From Calditrichota bacterium (GTDB lineage: Bacteria > CLD3): 64,000 bases of DNA. Where the stretch lies: contig QQUF01000040.1 in the NCBI GenBank assembly GCA_008501735.1, forward strand, positions 134,431 to 198,430. The letters are read 5' to 3'. This document shows, piece after piece, positions 15,644 through 61,705 of the stretch (the first letter of the stretch is position 1; the number at the start of each line of letters is the position of its first letter). The notes under the pieces were generated by a model. The model saw nothing but the letters and a program-made list of their open reading frames with translations. It was not told where the DNA came from and ran no database searches. The position numbers and the translations under genes are program-made.

Positions 15644-17701
15644 ATGGAATTAAGTGAAACCTGTAAATATAAATTTACAGGTGAGCAAACAAAATGCTCT
15701 CAACCTAATTATCAAAATGAAAAATTTTGTATTTTTCATTTTGATAATGTGGAACAAAAAAAACAGGATTTTACTATTGCCTTTGAAAATTACATAATGA
15801 GGTGTGAAGAAAACGTATTTATGGAACGTTATGATTTCAGAGGCTTCGTTTTTCCTGAAATATCCTTCAAAGGAAAAGAATTTTATAAAATTGTTGATTT
15901 TAGCTCAAGTAAATTTGTTGAAAATACTTTTTTTGAAAAAAGTCAATTTAATGAGGCTGCGGTCTTTAGAGATTGTGTCTTTTCAAGATTTGCATGGTTT
16001 CATTTATGTAAATTTTATGGAAATGCTGTTTTCAATGGTTGTAAGTTCTCGGGTAATGTAGATTTTGGTGAAAGTATATTTTCATACTATGCTCATTTCT
16101 TTGATATTGAATTTTTGGGAAATAGTACTTTTTATAAATGTGCATTTAAAGGGATTGCCAATTTTTCACAAAGCAAATTCATTAACGATGTTGACTTTTC
16201 TCAAGCCACATTTTGGGGATACTCAAGTTTTAATAATGCCTGTTTCCTTAATCGTGTGGACTTTTTTCAGGCAAATTTCAATGAAGAAATAAAAATGAAT
16301 GAATCTCATTTTACTTTCATGAAAAACCTGAAAGCATCAGGAATAAATTTTGAAAATTCAGTTCTTGAATCCGCTCATCTTTGGAAAATTGATAAACTTG
16401 AGGATTACTCTTTCAAAAATTCCTTTTTACTTTCAATCAGCTTTGCAAACAAGAGATTTATAAACTGTAATTTCACAGGTGCTTTATTCGATGCTGTTCA
16501 CACAAGAGGCTGGCAACCTGATGATAAAACACTTAAAAATACAAAATACATTTACACAAATTATTCAAAAGATGAAGACGGAAACTTAACTGTTGACCCA
16601 GAAAGTCGTGTTCCTGCTGACGGAAATTTTGGCGAAGGAGAACACAAAGATTTTACAATTGCACACTACTTGAGAGAGCCAATAAAATGGAGTTTTGCTT
16701 TAAAACTTCCTTTGGAAATCAGAACAGGAATTACAAACTACATTCAGTTTTTCAAAGACTTTGTCCGAATTACTTTAGGAGTTGAAGTTGAAATTAGGTC
16801 TAAAAAAGAAGGCGGAAGAATTAGAGTTGAATTTGAAGCAGAGAACGAAGATGACAAGAAAGTGCTTAAAGGTAGTTTTGTAGAATTTATGAGGAAAGTT
16901 TTTGAAGACACCGAAAATCTAAATCTTGAAATTCGAGGTGGAACTGCAAAAGTTGAAGAAATTGAAAAGCTACAATTCAAGATGGAAAACAATATCAAAA
17001 ACTTACAAATGGAACTCAAACTTGAGAAATATTTAAATCTTAGTTTGAAAGAAGATAAAAGTGATTTTAAAGAACAAAACAAATTACTTGCTAGAGTAAT
17101 TGAAAGCATTGAACAAAAGTCTTTACCTGAAAAAACTACTTCCGAAAAATGCGATGTTAACACTTTTGCACTTTTCGCAGACTTAGCAGGTTTTTCAAAA
17201 GCAACGGCAGAAGACGAATCAATTCATAAAATCATTCAGGATTTTTTCCTAAAAGAAAGAGATGAAATTGAGCCAAAAGATGGAGTTGAAGAAGTCAAAT
17301 CAAACGGTGATGACATTATCGCTTTTGGGCTTGACGGAATGAGTTTAGTTTGGGTTGCCGAAGATTTGATAAATGATTTTCAAAAACTAAAAAGAGACTT
17401 TCAAGACTTTCCAATTAAAGGTTTTCGAGTTGTTCTTGGTTACGGAACTTGTACGAGACAAAAGGTCGGAGATAAAATTAGCTTTTCAGGAAATCCAATA
17501 ATTGACACTGCTCGTGTTGACCAGCCAATGAAAAGATACATTCAAGAAAACAACGAAGATTTGAATCAAATTTGGTGTACGGAAGATTTTAAAGATGAAA
17601 TGACCCGAAGAGGTGAAAAAAGAATTTCTTTTGAGGAACTTCCTGAAATGGATTTAGCCAAAGGTTATGAAAAGAAATTTAAACTTTTTAGGGTGAAGTA
17701 A
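15644..17701 (+). CDS. Pentapeptide-repeat protein fused to a class III nucleotidyl-cyclase-like domain
   Basis: A 685-residue, leaderless protein. Residues 7-32 hold C-x10-C-x10-C-x2-H, a small zinc-ribbon-like lead-in often seen before pentapeptide repeats. Residues about 60-290 are pentapeptide-like repeats with Phe at the centre position (for example NAVFNGCKFSGNVDFGES), a right-handed quadrilateral helix. A middle region (about 330-500) is partly coiled coil. Residues about 505-680 resemble class III cyclases: FADLAGFS (Asp513), KSNGDDIIAFG (Asp556) and GNPIIDTARVD (Arg624). The usual transition-state Asn four residues before the Arg is Ile. Activity is therefore unsure. AGGAG sits before the ATG, 18 bp after ggt, and hairpin repeats follow. 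Confidence 0.72.
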   Translation: MELSETCKYKFTGEQTKCSQPNYQNEKFCIFHFDNVEQKKQDFTIAFENYIMRCEENVFMERYDFRGFVFPEISFKGKEFYKIVDFSSSKFVENTFFEKSQFNEAAVFRDCVFSRFAWFHLCKFYGNAVFNGCKFSGNVDFGESIFSYYAHFFDIEFLGNSTFYKCAFKGIANFSQSKFINDVDFSQATFWGYSSFNNACFLNRVDFFQANFNEEIKMNESHFTFMKNLKASGINFENSVLESAHLWKIDKLEDYSFKNSFLLSISFANKRFINCNFTGALFDAVHTRGWQPDDKTLKNTKYIYTNYSKDEDGNLTVDPESRVPADGNFGEGEHKDFTIAHYLREPIKWSFALKLPLEIRTGITNYIQFFKDFVRITLGVEVEIRSKKEGGRIRVEFEAENEDDKKVLKGSFVEFMRKVFEDTENLNLEIRGGTAKVEEIEKLQFKMENNIKNLQMELKLEKYLNLSLKEDKSDFKEQNKLLARVIESIEQKSLPEKTTSEKCDVNTFALFADLAGFSKATAEDESIHKIIQDFFLKERDEIEPKDGVEEVKSNGDDIIAFGLDGMSLVWVAEDLINDFQKLKRDFQDFPIKGFRVVLGYGTCTRQKVGDKISFSGNPIIDTARVDQPMKRYIQENNEDLNQIWCTEDFKDEMTRRGEKRISFEELPEMDLAKGYEKKFKLFRVK

Positions 17702-17725: not shown

Positions 17726-17809
17726 GTGCGTTTTGCCCGCTAAAGCGTTCAACCCGCTGAGAGGAATGTTCGGATTTAGCGGGTCGAATGCGAATGCAGG
17801 CGAAACGCA
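17726..17809 (+). repeat. REP-like 84-bp hairpin repeat, left copy
   Basis: One of two direct copies (other at 18475-18558), 79 of 84 positions identical. It folds as a nested hairpin. The outer arm GCGTTTTGCCCGC pairs with GCAGGCGAAACGC, an internal bulge follows, the inner arm GCGTTCAACCCGCT pairs with AGCGGGTCGAATGC, and a loop of about 19 nt closes it. Arm mismatches are G-T, so pairing survives in RNA or single-stranded DNA. Four of the five differences between copies fall in the loop. It follows the cyclase-like gene and lies just 3' of the transposase gene. Confidence 0.85.
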
Positions 17810-17871
17810 CCGCACTACACTCTCACTCTCTACGCACAGACCAAAATTATAAGTCATACAAACACAACATT

Positions 17872-18426
17872 CTAAAGCCAATACTTTTGCTTTACCTCTT
17901 TAATCATATCTTGTGAGAATTGATAGAACTCCTCTTTTGAGTTTTGTGGAAAGTCTTTTAAAATTAATTCCATTTTTGGTAGAGTGCCGTTTCGGTAGCC
18001 TGTAAAATCTCTGAAACTACTGTAATGCCAATCCTCTTGCTTTTCTACAAAACCAGCTCTAACAGGATTTTGATGAATGTAAATGACTAAGGTTAAAAAA
18101 TATTTTGAGTCTTGAACAAGTTTTGCTTTACTGTGTCTTTGAAATAAACTTCCTGTTCTTTTGTACTTTCTGTTGAAGACTTGTGCATAAGAACTTAAAA
18201 CGTAACTAAATTGTCTGACTAACTCTTTTAAATTTTCAGTTTCAACTTTAATCAAAAAATGAAAGTGGTTTGGCATCAAACAGTAAGCAATTACTTCTAA
18301 ATGTTCGTCCAAATGGTAGCGGAATTTTTTTAGAAAAAGTAGGTAGTCTTTAGAATCCTTAAAAATATTCTCAGAGTTGATTCCACGATTGTAAAGGTGG
18401 TAAAATTCTCCATTTAGTAAATTCAT
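17872..18426 (-). CDS. REP-associated tyrosine transposase (RAYT, Y1_Tnp domain)
   Basis: A 184-residue HUH-family nuclease related to IS200/IS605 TnpA. It opens with GEFYHLYNRG, carries the metal-binding HUH pair in CLMPNHFHFLIKVE, and has the nucleophile helix with Tyr in the second half (FSYVLSSYAQVFNRKYKRTG), then LFQRHSKAKLV and YIHQNPVRAGFV, all RAYT hallmarks. It would nick and rejoin single-stranded DNA at REP hairpins. AAGGAC precedes the start. Both sides carry direct copies of an 84-bp hairpin repeat, the likely substrate. No tnpB-type accessory is present. Confidence 0.92.
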   Translation of the reverse strand: MNLLNGEFYHLYNRGINSENIFKDSKDYLLFLKKFRYHLDEHLEVIAYCLMPNHFHFLIKVETENLKELVRQFSYVLSSYAQVFNRKYKRTGSLFQRHSKAKLVQDSKYFLTLVIYIHQNPVRAGFVEKQEDWHYSSFRDFTGYRNGTLPKMELILKDFPQNSKEEFYQFSQDMIKEVKQKYWL

Positions 18427-18474
18427 TTTTTGTCCTTAAATTTATTTGAGAAAGTTGTGCATTCTATTCTTTCT

Positions 18475-18558
18475 GTGCGTTTTGCCCGCTGAAGCGTTCA
18501 ACCCGCTGTAAATAATGTTCGGATTTAGCGGGTCGAATGCGAATGCAGGCGAAACGCA
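18475..18558 (+). repeat. REP-like 84-bp hairpin repeat, right copy
   Basis: Direct copy of the element at 17726-17809, with the same outer and inner arms. It differs at one arm position (A to G, still pairing with T or C by wobble rules) and at four positions in the loop. It lies 48 bp upstream of the transposase start codon, so it may also affect transcription of that gene, and 90 bp upstream of the YfhO-like gene. Confidence 0.85.
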
Positions 18559-35219: not shown

Positions 35220-37070
35220 TTACTCGATTTTTTCTAAAATTTCACCGCAACTGAACATTCTTGAGCCAAAATAAGGATTTTCAATTTCACTTCTTTCAGC
35301 TAACCAAGTTGCACCTTTGTTTCCAAAAGCCATTGGACATTTTGCAATAAAAACAACATTCTCAGCACCAAACATTTTTACAATTTTCGTTATTGTTTGG
35401 GAGAAAGGGGAAAAATATTTTCTTTGAGTTTCTAAGTCTTCTGAGTGAGAAAAGTGTTCTGAATCTTTGCGAAGTTGAGCAATTAAATTAAACCACTTTG
35501 TTCGATTAAGTTTATCCAAAAGTTCAATGTTGCAATCTTCAAAATCTGCCAAAATATTCTTTGCTAAATGTTTAGAGTGTTTGCTTTGGTCTTTGGAAAG
35601 TGCTTTTTGTAACGAAAAGTAAGATTCCAAAGAAATTGAGATTTGTTTGCGAAATTCTAAAGGAGAGTTCGCATTTAAAGTTTCAGACCTGACAGGTTTT
35701 AAAAACCTGTCAGGTCTATTTTCACTCATCATACTTGGTTTGGCAACGATTTGGAGAGCAGAGTCAATTTTGAAAGCACCGTTTGTAACAACTTCTTCGC
35801 CTTCTTGTAATCCATTTTTAATTACATAAAAATCTCCTGCACGAACTCCGAGATTTACTTCTCTTCCTTCAAAAGTTGGTTCATTTTTATTTGTAACTTT
35901 AACGTAAACTATTGCTCTTTTACCTGTAATCAAAACTGCTGATTTAGGGACAACCAAAGGTGCGTGAGTTTTTTGTTCTTTGTCAGCGAATCCCAATTTT
36001 TCTGCTTTTACTAAACTCATTCCACAGATGTCGCAATTCCCGGGATTGTTTTTAACGATTTCAGGATGCATCGGAGAAATCCATTTTCCTTCAAGGGAAT
36101 TCTCGATGACTGAACCGTCTTCTGTAACTGTTGCTTTCAAAGTTGCTTTCACAAACATTTCAGGTTTTAATTTTTCGTCTTTGTTCACAACATTGAGGCG
36201 AACTTTTACAGTTCGTGTTTTTGGATTTAAAGTCGGTTCGATGAATGCAACTCTTCCTGTAAAAACTTCACTTGGGAACGCCGTTACACTAAATTCGACT
36301 TTTTGTCCGTAGTGTAAAAATTGTAAATCGGATTCGTAAGCATCAAGAAAAACCCAGACTTTTGAAAAATCTGCAATTTGGTAAAGTGGAGAACCTTCTT
36401 TGACGTAAATTCCTTCCGTTGCACTTTTGTGAATCACAATTCCGTCAATTTCAGAATTAACAATTAAGTTTTGTTTTACTTTTTTAGTCTTTTCAAGTTC
36501 TTGAATTTGTTCAGAACTTACACCGAGAATCTCAAGTTTCTTTCGTGCCGATTTCTTTTGACTTTCAGAATTAGCGAATTGAAATGTTTGTAAAAATTCC
36601 TCTTGAGCAGAGACGAGTTCAGGACTGTAAATTTCTACCAAATGGTCACCTTTTCGCACTCGGACTCCAGTGTAGTCAACAAAAAGTCTTTCAAGTCTGC
36701 CGTTAGTCCAAGCGGAAATAGTTTTGACTTTGGTTTCATCGAGGACGATTTTTCCAACCATTCGGACTTCAACATCAACAAATTTTCTTTCAATTTTTGT
36801 TGTTTGTATTTCTGCAAGTTTCATCGCCGATTCGGACATTTTGATTTCTCTTTCATTGCCTTCTTCGGAAGTGTCTTCAACAAGCGGAATCAAATCCATT
36901 CTACAAATCGGGCAAAGTCCCGGTTTAGGTAAACGAACTTGTGGATGCATTGAACAAGTCCAAATTGTTGTGTTTGTTATTGAATCAGTTTCTGTTTGTG
37001 AGTGGTTGTGTTCTTCTTTTTTCTCACCACAAGCAACGAGAAACATCAAAAAAATTATTAAAATCTTCAT
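35220..37070 (-). CDS. cusB: CusB-type periplasmic adaptor with two heavy-metal-binding domains
   Basis: A 616-residue membrane-fusion lipoprotein (signal ending FLMFLVACGE). It has an N-terminal metal-binding module (TCSMHPQVRLPKPGLCPICR), then the adaptor hairpin, lipoyl and beta-barrel domains. A second metal module (SPMHPEIVKNNPGNCDICGM, about 335-360) is inserted in the membrane-proximal part, and a DUF3347-type domain lies at about 460-610. It links pump and outer-membrane channel. An exact 33-bp palindrome lies in the frame at 35685-35717, adding 11 residues (RPDRFLKPVRS) in the linker before DUF3347. Confidence 0.92.
   Translation of the reverse strand: MKILIIFLMFLVACGEKKEEHNHSQTETDSITNTTIWTCSMHPQVRLPKPGLCPICRMDLIPLVEDTSEEGNEREIKMSESAMKLAEIQTTKIERKFVDVEVRMVGKIVLDETKVKTISAWTNGRLERLFVDYTGVRVRKGDHLVEIYSPELVSAQEEFLQTFQFANSESQKKSARKKLEILGVSSEQIQELEKTKKVKQNLIVNSEIDGIVIHKSATEGIYVKEGSPLYQIADFSKVWVFLDAYESDLQFLHYGQKVEFSVTAFPSEVFTGRVAFIEPTLNPKTRTVKVRLNVVNKDEKLKPEMFVKATLKATVTEDGSVIENSLEGKWISPMHPEIVKNNPGNCDICGMSLVKAEKLGFADKEQKTHAPLVVPKSAVLITGKRAIVYVKVTNKNEPTFEGREVNLGVRAGDFYVIKNGLQEGEEVVTNGAFKIDSALQIVAKPSMMSENRPDRFLKPVRSETLNANSPLEFRKQISISLESYFSLQKALSKDQSKHSKHLAKNILADFEDCNIELLDKLNRTKWFNLIAQLRKDSEHFSHSEDLETQRKYFSPFSQTITKIVKMFGAENVVFIAKCPMAFGNKGATWLAERSEIENPYFGSRMFSCGEILEKIE
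35685..35717. repeat. 33-bp perfect palindrome inside cusB (palindromic element, family C)
   Basis: AGACCTGACAGGTTTT at 35685-35700 is exactly mirrored at 35702-35717 around one A. It is 33 bp, exactly 11 codons, and translates on the minus strand as RPDRFLKPVRS without breaking the frame. A sister palindrome with a compensated arm change lies between genes at 50056-50086. Confidence 0.85.
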
Positions 37071-48314: not shown

Positions 48315-48339
48315 AGAGAGGCTCTGCCTCTCTTTTTTT
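48315..48339 (+). terminator. Rho-independent terminator of the type IX-secreted protein gene
   Basis: AGAGAGGC at 48315-48322 pairs exactly with GCCTCTCT at 48326-48333 around TCT and runs into a T-tract. Confidence 0.9.
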
Positions 48340-48367
48340 GTTGGGAACAAAAATTTTTGTTCCCAAC
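48340..48367. repeat. 28-bp perfect palindrome (palindromic element, family B), copy 1
   Basis: GTTGGGAACAAAAA at 48340-48353 is exactly mirrored at 48354-48367. The same element with a compensated T/A swap in the arms is at 61675-61702. It lies right behind a terminator and is framed by ATTAAT/ATTGAT-rich sequence on both sides (48281-48310 and 48385-48420) that is itself loosely inverted. Confidence 0.8.
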
Positions 48368-48420
48368 ATTTTGTGTTACATTCCCAATTAATCATTAACC
48401 ATTAATCAATAATCATTAGA

Positions 48421-52344: not shown

Positions 52345-54402
52345 CTACACTTTTTCAATCCATTTATCATTTTCTTTAATCAAGTCAACAAGTCGGTCAA
52401 CCGCTTCAATTTCTGGAATTCCCGTTTTGACACACTCTTTTCCGACAAACAAATTTATCTTTCCCGGAACTGAACCAACGTAACCAAAATCTGCGTCAGC
52501 CATTTCTCCCGGACCATTTACGATGCAACCCATTATTGCGATTTTTACACCTACTAAGTGGTCAGTTCGTTTTTTGATTTTTTCGGTTACTTCTTGTAAG
52601 TCAAAAAGAGTTCTTCCACAACTCGGGCAAGAAATGAAATCAGTTTTGGAAATTCTTGTTCTTGTCGCTTGTAAAATTCCGTAAGAGACACGAGCCAAAA
52701 TTTCAGGATTTCCACTTCCGACAACCAAAACCGAGTCGCCAATTCCGTCGCAAAGCAAAGAACCGATTTCTGTCGCACTTCGCAAAAGTTGTTCCTCTTC
52801 TTCACCGAATGTGTTGGCAATTAAAGTGATGGGCAGTTTTGATTCTTTGTTTTCTAAAAACGCAGTTAGAAATCTGTAAAAAGGGACTGAACTAATTCCG
52901 GGTGAAGTTTTGAACGAAAAAGTAAGGTTTTCAAAATCCGTTTTTAAAATGGAATTAAGTTTTTCTTCTAAAATTTCAAAAGTAGAATCGGAGTCAATTT
53001 TAAAACAAATCTCTAACAACCTTTCTGAATTTTTTGCGAAAGAAATTGATTGAGTCAAAGTAGAGTTTTTTGTCCCATTTTCAACTAAAAGTGCAAACTT
53101 TGAAGCAACACTTTTGAACTTTTCAAAAACTTTTGCACTTGAAGATTCAACTGTTAAAGCATTAAAAAAATCAGAGTTAAGTTTTTGTGCTTTTTTTACG
53201 AAGGTCTCAAATTTTTCAGCTTCACTTTCCTCAATCCAAAATCTAATAATTTCGGTTTTTGATTCTGCTTTTAAGCAATCATTTATAATTTTTACTGTTT
53301 CGGGGAAGTGTTCAAAGTCCTCAAAAAATTGCGTTTCAACAGGAAGTGTGTAGTTTCCACCAAAGTTGAAAGTGCCGTTTTGGAGTTCAATTGTCTCACG
53401 TTTCTCGTAAACAAAAGGATTCCGTTTTTCTGAAATCTCTGAGTGTCTCACTCCGAGTGAGGCTCTCAGTTTTGATTCCGACTGAGAGCCTGAACTTGAA
53501 GTCAGACCCTCAGAAGAAATAAATTGATTGTATTTTTTAGCTAAAGCATAGGCGACAGGAATTTCGTGAATTGAGTCCTCTGTTAGCGAAACTCGAATTG
53601 TGTCGCCAATTCCGTCTTCAAGCAAAGAGCCAATTCCGACAGCGGATTTAATTCTTCCGTCTTCTCCATCGCCTGCTTCCGTTACTCCAAGATGAAACGG
53701 ATAATCCATTCCAAACTCGTACATTCTTGAGGCAAGAAGCCTGTAAGCCTGAATCATTACTTGAGCATTTGAGGCTTTCATCGAAATTATTAAATCTTTG
53801 TAGTTGTAAGATTCGCAGATTCTGACAAACTCTAGTGCTGACTCAACCATTCCTTCAGGAGTGTCGCCAAAACGATTCATAATTCTGTCTGAAAGTGAAC
53901 CGTGATTTGTTCCGATTCTCATTGAAACGCCGTTAGTTTTACATTTTTTTACGAGAGGTGCAAATTTTTTTTCTATTCTTTCAAGTTCAGCTTGGTACTC
54001 AGAATCTGTGTATTCCAAAATTGCAAATTTCTTTTTGTCTGCAAAATTACCTGGATTGATTCTGACTTTATCCACAAAATCTGCTGCAATCATTGCTGCG
54101 TCAGGTTTGAAGTGAATGTCTGCAACGAGTGGAATTTTATAGCCTCGTTTATGAATTGCCTCACGAATATTTTTTAAATTTTGGGCTTCTTTTAGTGAAG
54201 GAGCTGTGATTCTTACGACTTCACAACCTGCTTCGTAAAGTTCGATTGCCTCTTTTACGGTCTTTTCCGTGTCCATTGTGTGGGAAATTGTCATTGACTG
54301 AATTCGGATTGGATTGTTTCCGCCGACAGGAACATCACCGACATTTACAACTCGTGTTGGTCTGCGTTTCCAAGAAAAATTATTTTCACAATATTTTTGC
54401 AT
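52345..54402 (-). CDS. ispG: (E)-4-hydroxy-3-methylbut-2-enyl-diphosphate synthase, long form
   Basis: A 685-residue iron-sulfur enzyme of the MEP isoprenoid pathway that reduces MEcPP to HMBPP. The TIM-barrel domain (about 1-290: PIRIQSMTISHTMDTEKTV, PLVADIHFKPDAAM, KVRINPGNF) is separated from the C-terminal cluster domain (FISCPSCGRTLFDLQ and GCIVNGPGEMADADFGYVG, giving three Cys and a Glu for the 4Fe-4S cluster) by a roughly 270-residue insert. That is the layout of Bacteroidota, Chlorobi and plant enzymes. A palindrome-rich stretch lies inside the frame at 53447-53491. Confidence 0.95.
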   Translation of the reverse strand: MQKYCENNFSWKRRPTRVVNVGDVPVGGNNPIRIQSMTISHTMDTEKTVKEAIELYEAGCEVVRITAPSLKEAQNLKNIREAIHKRGYKIPLVADIHFKPDAAMIAADFVDKVRINPGNFADKKKFAILEYTDSEYQAELERIEKKFAPLVKKCKTNGVSMRIGTNHGSLSDRIMNRFGDTPEGMVESALEFVRICESYNYKDLIISMKASNAQVMIQAYRLLASRMYEFGMDYPFHLGVTEAGDGEDGRIKSAVGIGSLLEDGIGDTIRVSLTEDSIHEIPVAYALAKKYNQFISSEGLTSSSGSQSESKLRASLGVRHSEISEKRNPFVYEKRETIELQNGTFNFGGNYTLPVETQFFEDFEHFPETVKIINDCLKAESKTEIIRFWIEESEAEKFETFVKKAQKLNSDFFNALTVESSSAKVFEKFKSVASKFALLVENGTKNSTLTQSISFAKNSERLLEICFKIDSDSTFEILEEKLNSILKTDFENLTFSFKTSPGISSVPFYRFLTAFLENKESKLPITLIANTFGEEEEQLLRSATEIGSLLCDGIGDSVLVVGSGNPEILARVSYGILQATRTRISKTDFISCPSCGRTLFDLQEVTEKIKKRTDHLVGVKIAIMGCIVNGPGEMADADFGYVGSVPGKINLFVGKECVKTGIPEIEAVDRLVDLIKENDKWIEKV
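53447..53491. repeat. Nested inverted repeats inside the ispG frame
   Basis: CTCACTCCGAGTGAG (53447-53461) is a 15-bp palindrome. It overlaps AGGCTCTCAGT at 53460-53470, which pairs exactly with ACTGAGAGCCT at 53481-53491. Translated, the area gives a low-complexity Ser-rich linker (TSSSGSQSESKLRASLG) between the barrel and the inserted domain. It looks like an acquired palindromic element kept in frame. Confidence 0.6.
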
Positions 54403-61656: not shown

Positions 61657-61674
61657 AGAGAGTAAAATTTGAAA

Positions 61675-61702
61675 GTAGGGAACAAAAATTTTTGTTCCCT
61701 AC
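61675..61702. repeat. 28-bp perfect palindrome (family B), copy 2; likely bidirectional terminator
   Basis: GTAGGGAACAAAAA at 61675-61688 is exactly mirrored at 61689-61702. It differs from the copy at 48340 by one base pair swapped on both arms. It fills the 49-bp gap between the convergent kinase and TonB-dependent receptor genes. Confidence 0.82.
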
Positions 61703-61705
61703 ACA

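What the first reader, a model, noticed from the sequence alone, without database searches (positions are those of the whole stretch)
17726..18558. RAYT gene bracketed by direct copies of its probable hairpin substrate
The 84-bp repeats are 94% identical, fold as a two-level hairpin with an internal bulge, and vary almost only in the loop. Both are in the same orientation on either side of a Y1 transposase gene. It is a compact REP-RAYT pair outside the Proteobacteria, where most work was done.
Basis: partly seen in the sequence, partly recalled or inferred. Interest (0 to 1): 0.65.

Follow-up and report, generated by a model that had tools for sequence, protein, structure and literature searches.

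The report
RAYT gene flanked by hairpin doublets
A single-strand-DNA transposase gene is bracketed by two copies of the small inverted-hairpin element it probably moves, and its relatives in several bacterial phyla are bracketed by hairpins of nearly fixed size, a group of these enzymes reported to lack such partners.

Summary
Two 84-85 nt repeats (17726-17810, 18475-18558) lie in the same orientation around a 184-aa RAYT/TnpAREP-type Y1 gene (17872-18426, minus strand). A second RAYT in the genome (55% identical) has its own unrelated hairpin family (25 matches), so each transposase has its own repeat. The repeat is better read as an inverted pair of ~30-nt hairpins (a REPIN) than as one two-level hairpin: each arm folds alone, and the arms differ by two compensated base pairs. 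The gene belongs to a ~185-200 aa clade across at least six phyla. Of 77 clade genes 35 are bracketed by matching hairpins (0 of 119 control window pairs, 0 of 34 other genes, 0 of 13 long HTH-type RAYTs). Those hairpins cluster at a 15-bp stem and 3-nt loop; the window's copies have no GTAG foot. By motifs and spacing the clade is near subclass 2.1, reported in print to lack REPs, and not 2.6. Known kind (REPIN-RAYT), new variant. Cleavage and mobility are inferred.

The parts
17726..17810 (+). REP1 doublet, copy a (REPIN-like: two inverted arm hairpins with a 21-nt spacer)
17728..17757 (-). left arm hairpin of copy a (REP orientation on minus strand): 3 bp / 2x2 / 3 bp / 2x2 / 3 bp / 4-nt loop
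   Evidence: folds alone; aligned in A3
17775..17778 (+). TTTA at the 5' foot of the right arm, candidate guide tetranucleotide (inferred)
   Evidence: 7 of 7 right-arm copies in the genome
17779..17808 (+). right arm hairpin of copy a, the most conserved part
   Evidence: of 7 right arms 5 are identical, one lacks one loop base, and C47 differs only in internal-loop and terminal-loop bases
17872..18426 (-). RAYT/TnpAREP-type Y1 HUH transposase, 184 aa
18259..18267 (-). HUH motif H54-F55-H56
   Evidence: both His invariant in the 36-sequence alignment; coordinates
18079..18081 (-). probable catalytic Tyr116 (YIHQNP)
   Evidence: invariant; aligned with the Tyr of YIYINP in E. coli TnpAREP
18475..18558 (+). 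REP1 doublet, copy b
18477..18506 (-). left arm hairpin of copy b
18524..18527 (+). TTTA at the foot of the right arm of copy b
18528..18557 (+). right arm hairpin of copy b
   Evidence: identical to the right arm of copy a, which stands for both in alignment A3

Best explanation
This is a REPtron: a domesticated single-strand HUH/Y1 transposase (RAYT) with its own REPIN. Shown: the gene, the bracketing doublets, the dispersed copies, the predicted arm-hairpin fold, and a second RAYT in the same genome with an unrelated hairpin family. Inferred: the protein, probably as a dimer, binds the single-stranded ~30-nt arm hairpin (REP orientation 5'-TTTA-GCGGGTCGAATGC-GAAT-GCAGGCGAAACGC-A) exposed during replication. 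It reads hairpin size, mismatch positions and the foot rather than a GTAG tag, cuts beside the hairpins through Tyr116, and rejoins, so that doublets are copied or moved in trans to other intergenic sites. The gene with its two doublets does not seem to travel as an insertion sequence. Half copies elsewhere are decayed remnants.
For: HUH and Y---NP motifs and fold. Genome-wide REP1: 10 places at E<=1, six of them doublets; 8 at E<=0.01, none in the other 59 genomes. Nine of ten places overlap no ORF of >=90 aa; the tenth overlaps a 90-aa ORF. Arm pairing 95.6% of cells, two pairs with both-sided change, slid controls 11-60%. Second RAYT C52:116465-117007 (55%) flanked by its own doublets (14-nt arms, 3-nt loop) with 25 genome matches. 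The same layout in a related Ignavibacteriota RAYT (L070): doublets on both sides, 45 distinct places in that genome. Clade-wide bracketing 35 of 77 versus 0 of 119 and 0 of 34.
Against: No GT[AG]G foot. REP1 copy number is low. NCBIfam score is below its cut-off. No empty site was found: the nearest relative holding the neighbouring gene (67% identical YfhO) has a different upstream gene, so insertion history could not be read. The two covarying pairs in REP1 may be one historical split between arms. 42 of 77 clade genes were not bracketed by this filter, the window's own gene among them because its mismatched arms score under the threshold.
Confidence: 0.78

Rival explanations
1. An IS200/IS605-type insertion sequence: the two same-strand hairpins are its left and right ends and the whole 834-bp unit moves.
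For: Same-orientation hairpins on both sides of a Y1 transposase gene; the fold also matches IS200/IS608/ISDra2 TnpA.
Against: One copy of the gene plus one 55% paralogue with different repeats in the genome; motif Y---NP, while PMC6006769 gives Y---Q for IS200; REP1 occurs without the gene at eight other places, four of them doublets; each repeat is itself a doublet.
Confidence: 0.08
2. The repeats are RNA-level elements (terminators, mRNA stabilisers or a structured RNA), and the transposase is a chance neighbour.
For: REP1 places are almost all intergenic; the doublets fold well.
Against: No terminator-like site and no Rfam match; two RAYTs in one genome each carry their own family on both sides; clade-wide bracketing with controls at zero. 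Co-option for RNA roles is not excluded.
Confidence: 0.08
3. Integron attC-like cassette: same-orientation bulged hairpins around one gene.
For: Direct orientation, extra-helical bases and variable loop recall attC sites (recalled).
Against: Solo and half copies at scattered sites, no cassette array around the gene, and a better-fitting arm-hairpin model. An integron integrase was not searched for.
Confidence: 0.02

Closest known systems
REPIN-RAYT systems of Pseudomonas fluorescens SBW25 (Bertels and Rainey 2011, PMC3116915; passages read)
   Same: Inverted REP doublets with a spacer, a different doublet family beside each RAYT, singlets as decayed remnants.
   Different: No GTAG-type foot here; arms carry two 2x2 mismatches; few copies; a different protein clade.
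E. coli TnpAREP and its REPs (PMC8266576 passages read; PDB 4er8)
   Same: HUH/Y1 fold; hairpins with a 2x2 mismatch (an AA-GC mismatch needed for activity there; GC/AA in the genome's second family here).
   Different: 17% identity in the aligned fold; W94 replaced by F95; no GTAG.
TnpAREP subclass 2.6 = Bertels group 5 (PMC6006769; passages and two sections read)
   Same: Atypical hairpins without GT[AG]G, copies elsewhere in the genome, about 179 aa; mostly Bacteroidetes, where part of the present clade also lies.
   Different: 2.6 has NH[LIV]H, WQ and a 21-aa insertion; here NHFH, FQ and HUH-to-Tyr spacing about 57 against about 76 in 2.6-like references.
TnpAREP subclass 2.1 = Bertels group 1 (PMC6006769)
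   Same: Alternative motif set NH[YF]H / FQ / Y[IV]HLNP; nearest neighbours in the tree are long HTH-tailed RAYTs.
   Different: 2.1 is long (median 238 aa) with HTH tails and was reported to have no REP-like sequences; this clade is mostly 176-205 aa and often hairpin-bracketed.

Membership tests
RAYT/TnpAREP (class 2 TnpAY1) | HUH motif, single Tyr in Y---NP | tested here: met
   PNHFH and YIHQNP, invariant His and Tyr in 36 sequences
RAYT/TnpAREP (class 2 TnpAY1) | TnpAREP core fold | tested here: met
   4er8 best PDB match, E 5.2e-9, TM 0.59/0.66
RAYT/TnpAREP (class 2 TnpAY1) | NCBIfam NF047646 equivalog cut-off (a model score, not a biological feature) | tested here: not met
   72.6 bits against 80
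RAYT/TnpAREP (class 2 TnpAY1) | low copy number, divergent paralogues | tested here: met
   two Y1 genes in 4.14 Mb, 55% identical
RAYT/TnpAREP (class 2 TnpAY1) | GT[AG]G at the REP foot (canonical subclasses only; 2.6 and class 3 lack it in print) | tested here: not met
   TTTA at 7 of 7 right arms
RAYT/TnpAREP (class 2 TnpAY1) | cleaves/rejoins its REP | not testable with these tools
   needs protein
REPIN | two inverted REPs with a spacer | tested here: met
   6 of 10 places are doublets, spacer variable
REPIN | dispersed, RAYT-linked | tested here: met
   own family for each RAYT
REPIN | excision or transposition | not testable with these tools
   one genome of the species; no empty site
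subclass 2.6 | WQ motif and 21-aa insertion before beta-4 | tested here: not met
   FQ; clade median HUH-Tyr spacing 57 versus 76 in 2.6-like references
subclass 2.6 | groups with 2.6 in a tree | tested here: inconclusive
   clade apart with SH-aLRT 97; joining 2.6-like references not rejected, p-AU 0.08
subclass 2.1 | long protein with HTH tail | tested here: not met
   184 aa; clade 166-208 aa
subclass 2.1 | NH[YF]H, FQ, Y[IV]HLNP | tested here: inconclusive
   NHFH and FQ fit, YIHQNP in place of Y[IV]HLNP; in the clade NHYH/FQ/YIHLNP is common but FE and other YIHxNP also occur
IS200/IS605 | Y---Q motif and multiple near-identical copies | tested here: not met
   Y---NP; one copy plus a 55% paralogue

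The most novel reading that the evidence does not exclude
A RAYT clade spread over Cyanobacteriota, Chloroflexota, Ignavibacteriota, Bacteroidota and several candidate phyla, in the region of subclass 2.1 that was reported to lack REPs, recognises its partners by size: hairpins with a 15-bp stem and 3-nt loop (33 nt), with A at stem position 1 and pyrimidine-T next to the loop, while most of the stem sequence changes from genome to genome in compensated pairs. The window's own family is a mismatched, doubled variant. This makes hairpin size a testable recognition code separate from the GTAG code.
Probability: 0.5. Interest if true: 0.68.

Novelty: new variant of a known kind. Interest (0 to 1): 0.52.

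Why it matters
REP-RAYT pairs are a leading example of a domesticated prokaryotic transposase that keeps small repeats alive in genomes, and the work read here centres on GTAG-tagged forms. A large clade with a near-fixed hairpin geometry but changing sequence would show that partner recognition can rest on size and fold. It would also give the short palindromes scattered through some cyanobacterial and chloroflexotal genomes a candidate mover, and it offers two different RAYT-REP pairs in one genome for swap tests.

Tried and rejected
Long two-level hairpin as the functional fold: within-arm pairing fits better, but both folds may form. IS unit: see rivals. Empty-site search through the YfhO neighbour: the closest relative has a different upstream gene. 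The first genome pattern for REP1 found nothing because it mixed the two arms. Subclass 2.6 placement: motif and spacing against, tree not decisive. The null is imperfect: some random pairs share real repeats (maximum 136), so I rely on the hairpin test. The displaced windows are not tied to gene ends, so other genes in the same loci were added as a control. The bracket filter misses mismatched arms, the window's own included, and E. coli-type REPs (2.2-like references 0 of 6; 2.8-like 0 of 3; 2.6-like 3 of 5). Literature: nine searches. The stem words searched gave two papers, both unrelated by title. From the listings, abstracts and passages seen, no paper reports a 15/3 hairpin class for this clade, but subscription papers, Bertels 2017 and the supplements of PMC6006769 were not seen. 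Papers opened: PMC6006769 (passages, sections 13 and 17), PMC3733652, PMC8266576, PMC3116915 and PMC12306157 (passages only).

Full report
Observation. Two repeats of 84-85 nt, 17726-17810 and 18475-18558, lie in the same orientation on either side of a 184-aa ORF on the minus strand (17872-18426). They agree at 79 of 85 positions, and both strands of both copies fold better than every one of 200 shuffles. The ORF matches Y1_Tnp, NCBIfam REP-associated tyrosine transposase below its cut-off, E. coli TnpAREP by sequence and by predicted fold. His54, His56 and Tyr116 are invariant among 36 aligned sequences.

Copies in the genome. The genome (4.14 Mb, 59 contigs) holds ten places with REP1 at E<=1 and eight at E<=0.01. 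Six are doublets: the two here, C38, C30, C52 and C12 (in C52 the left arm is shortened). Four are partial: C44:203841, C47, C55 and C32; the last two are weak on their own (E 0.19 and 0.65), and C47 keeps a right arm with a decayed left one. None of the other 59 genomes has a match; these include one of the same family and seven of the same class. Nine of ten places lie outside ORFs of >=90 aa; the tenth (C55) overlaps a 90-aa ORF. C38 and C30 lie within 400 bases of contig starts, so repeats may have broken the assembly there.

Structure. The window arms and several others fold alone as 3 bp / 2x2 / 3 bp / 2x2 / 3 bp around a 3-5 nt loop; two left arms do not fold so cleanly (C32 on either strand, C12 on one strand). 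Across ten distinct arms 95.6% of pair cells are standard; two pairs change on both sides, and sliding the partner by 1-3 columns drops pairing to 11-60%. Related rows inflate such counts; the two changes may be one old split between left and right arms. The right arm is nearly invariant and is preceded by TTTA in 7 of 7 copies, while spacer length and sequence vary. This is the REPIN layout described for Pseudomonas (PMC3116915, passages read).

A second pair in the same genome. The other Y1 gene (C52:116465-117007, 55% identical) carries a different family: doublets of 31-nt hairpins, 6 bp / 2x2 / 6 bp / 3-nt loop, with 25 matches in the genome at E<=0.01. Its two hairpin types differ at three stem pairs, each compensated (read from the sequences). 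Each RAYT with its own repeat is the expected pattern for REP-RAYT co-evolution.

Relatives. 80 loci were kept from a scan of named genomes (the best 80 of 566 relatives), plus loci. The window protein falls in a clade of 53 rows (SH-aLRT 97) in a 91-row tree, with Ignavibacteriota, Bacteroidota, Chloroflexota, Cyanobacteriota, Cloacimonadota, Fidelibacterota, Poribacteria and a Parcubacteria record. The 82 rows labelled 'clade' by profile score were thinned to 44 for that tree; 9 rows of the looser group also fall inside. References for other subclasses were chosen by motif, not from the published set. The clade lies next to long HTH-type RAYTs (support 89, not strong). Joining it to 2.6-like references is not rejected (p-AU 0.08). 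Median HUH-to-Tyr spacing is 57 (clade), 56 (long) and 76 (2.6-like), and motifs are mostly P[NT]H[YF]H, F[QE], YIHxNP. PMC6006769 (passages and sections 13 and 17 read; its supplements not seen) lists NH[YF]H/FQ/Y[IV]HLNP under subclass 2.1 and states that neither automatic nor manual search found REP-like sequences there.

Bracketing. With one hairpin filter, 35 of 77 clade genes with usable flanks have similar hairpins on both sides; 3 of 11 of a looser group; 0 of 13 long RAYTs; 0 of 119 displaced window pairs; and 0 of 34 other genes of the same loci. The 35 include the second RAYT of this genome but not the window's own, whose mismatched arms fall under the threshold. The 38 brackets (35 plus 3) are in Chloroflexota (14), Cyanobacteriota (12), Bacteroidota (4), one each in Ignavibacteriota, Fidelibacterota and Poribacteria, and five in unnamed or unassigned records.

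A size rule. In 108 kb of clade flanks there are 91 perfect hairpins of >=10 bp, 48 with a stem of exactly 15 bp; of the 79 with a stem of >=13 bp, 64 have a 3-nt loop. The rest of the same loci has 51 in 301 kb (19 of them 15 bp), and long-RAYT flanks have 2 in 20 kb. Among 38 distinct 15-nt arms, position 1 is A in 37, position 14 is C or T in 38, and position 15 is T in 38. These arms chain into 8 loose families, one of them with 46 of 62 hairpins, so they are not 38 independent inventions. Left and right hairpins of one locus differ at 19 of 377 stem pairs compared, 17 of them on both sides with pairing kept (only pairs with 3-nt loops could be compared). Template switching between arms could give this without selection for structure.

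Dispersal elsewhere. The hairpin beside the Komarekiella RAYT occurs 30 times in that genome, always with a 3-nt loop although 1-5 were allowed, with four copies within about 1.5 kb of the gene; 9 times in one Nostoc, once in Stenomitos, and never in nine other genomes. The Ignavibacteriota L070 doublet has 45 distinct places on 25 contigs, three at the gene; only 40 of 145 candidates were scored. The window's genome also has seven 15-bp palindromes with 2-4 nt loops of another sequence.

Mechanism. From E. coli, Stenotrophomonas and Marinomonas work (PMC8266576, passages read) TnpAREP binds folded ssDNA of one strand, and mismatches, foot and loop matter to different degrees. By analogy this RAYT should act on the arm hairpin with TTTA or its terminal A as foot. 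This step is inferred.

Verdict. The window pair is a REPIN-RAYT system, a known kind. What is new is the protein group, the mismatched doublets without GTAG, and the clade-wide hairpin size rule.

Noticed in passing
window 35685-35717: Perfect palindrome AGACCTGACAGGTTT-3 nt-AAACCTGTCAGGTCT (15-bp stem), one of 7 in the genome with 2-4 nt loops; same geometry as the hairpins beside clade RAYTs, but neither RAYT of this genome carries it as its bracket.
   Followed up: partly
window 53438-53469: Solo hairpin of the second RAYT's family (REP2), 91% to the copy beside that gene.
   Followed up: partly
window 48339-48370 and 61672-61703: Two copies of a palindrome (GGGAACAAAAATTTTTGTTCCC); another copy adjoins the REP1 doublet on contig C30 (L006).
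   Followed up: no
window 15644-17701: 685-aa protein: pentapeptide repeats (Pfam) with a C-terminal part that recalls class III nucleotide cyclases; no Pfam match for that part and only weak PDB hits to adenylate cyclases (E 0.08-0.55).
   Followed up: partly
L070:2881-3696: Ignavibacteriota RAYT with two tandem doublets on its right side, 110 nt apart; the internal-loop trinucleotides of the right-hand hairpins are swapped between copies.
   Followed up: partly
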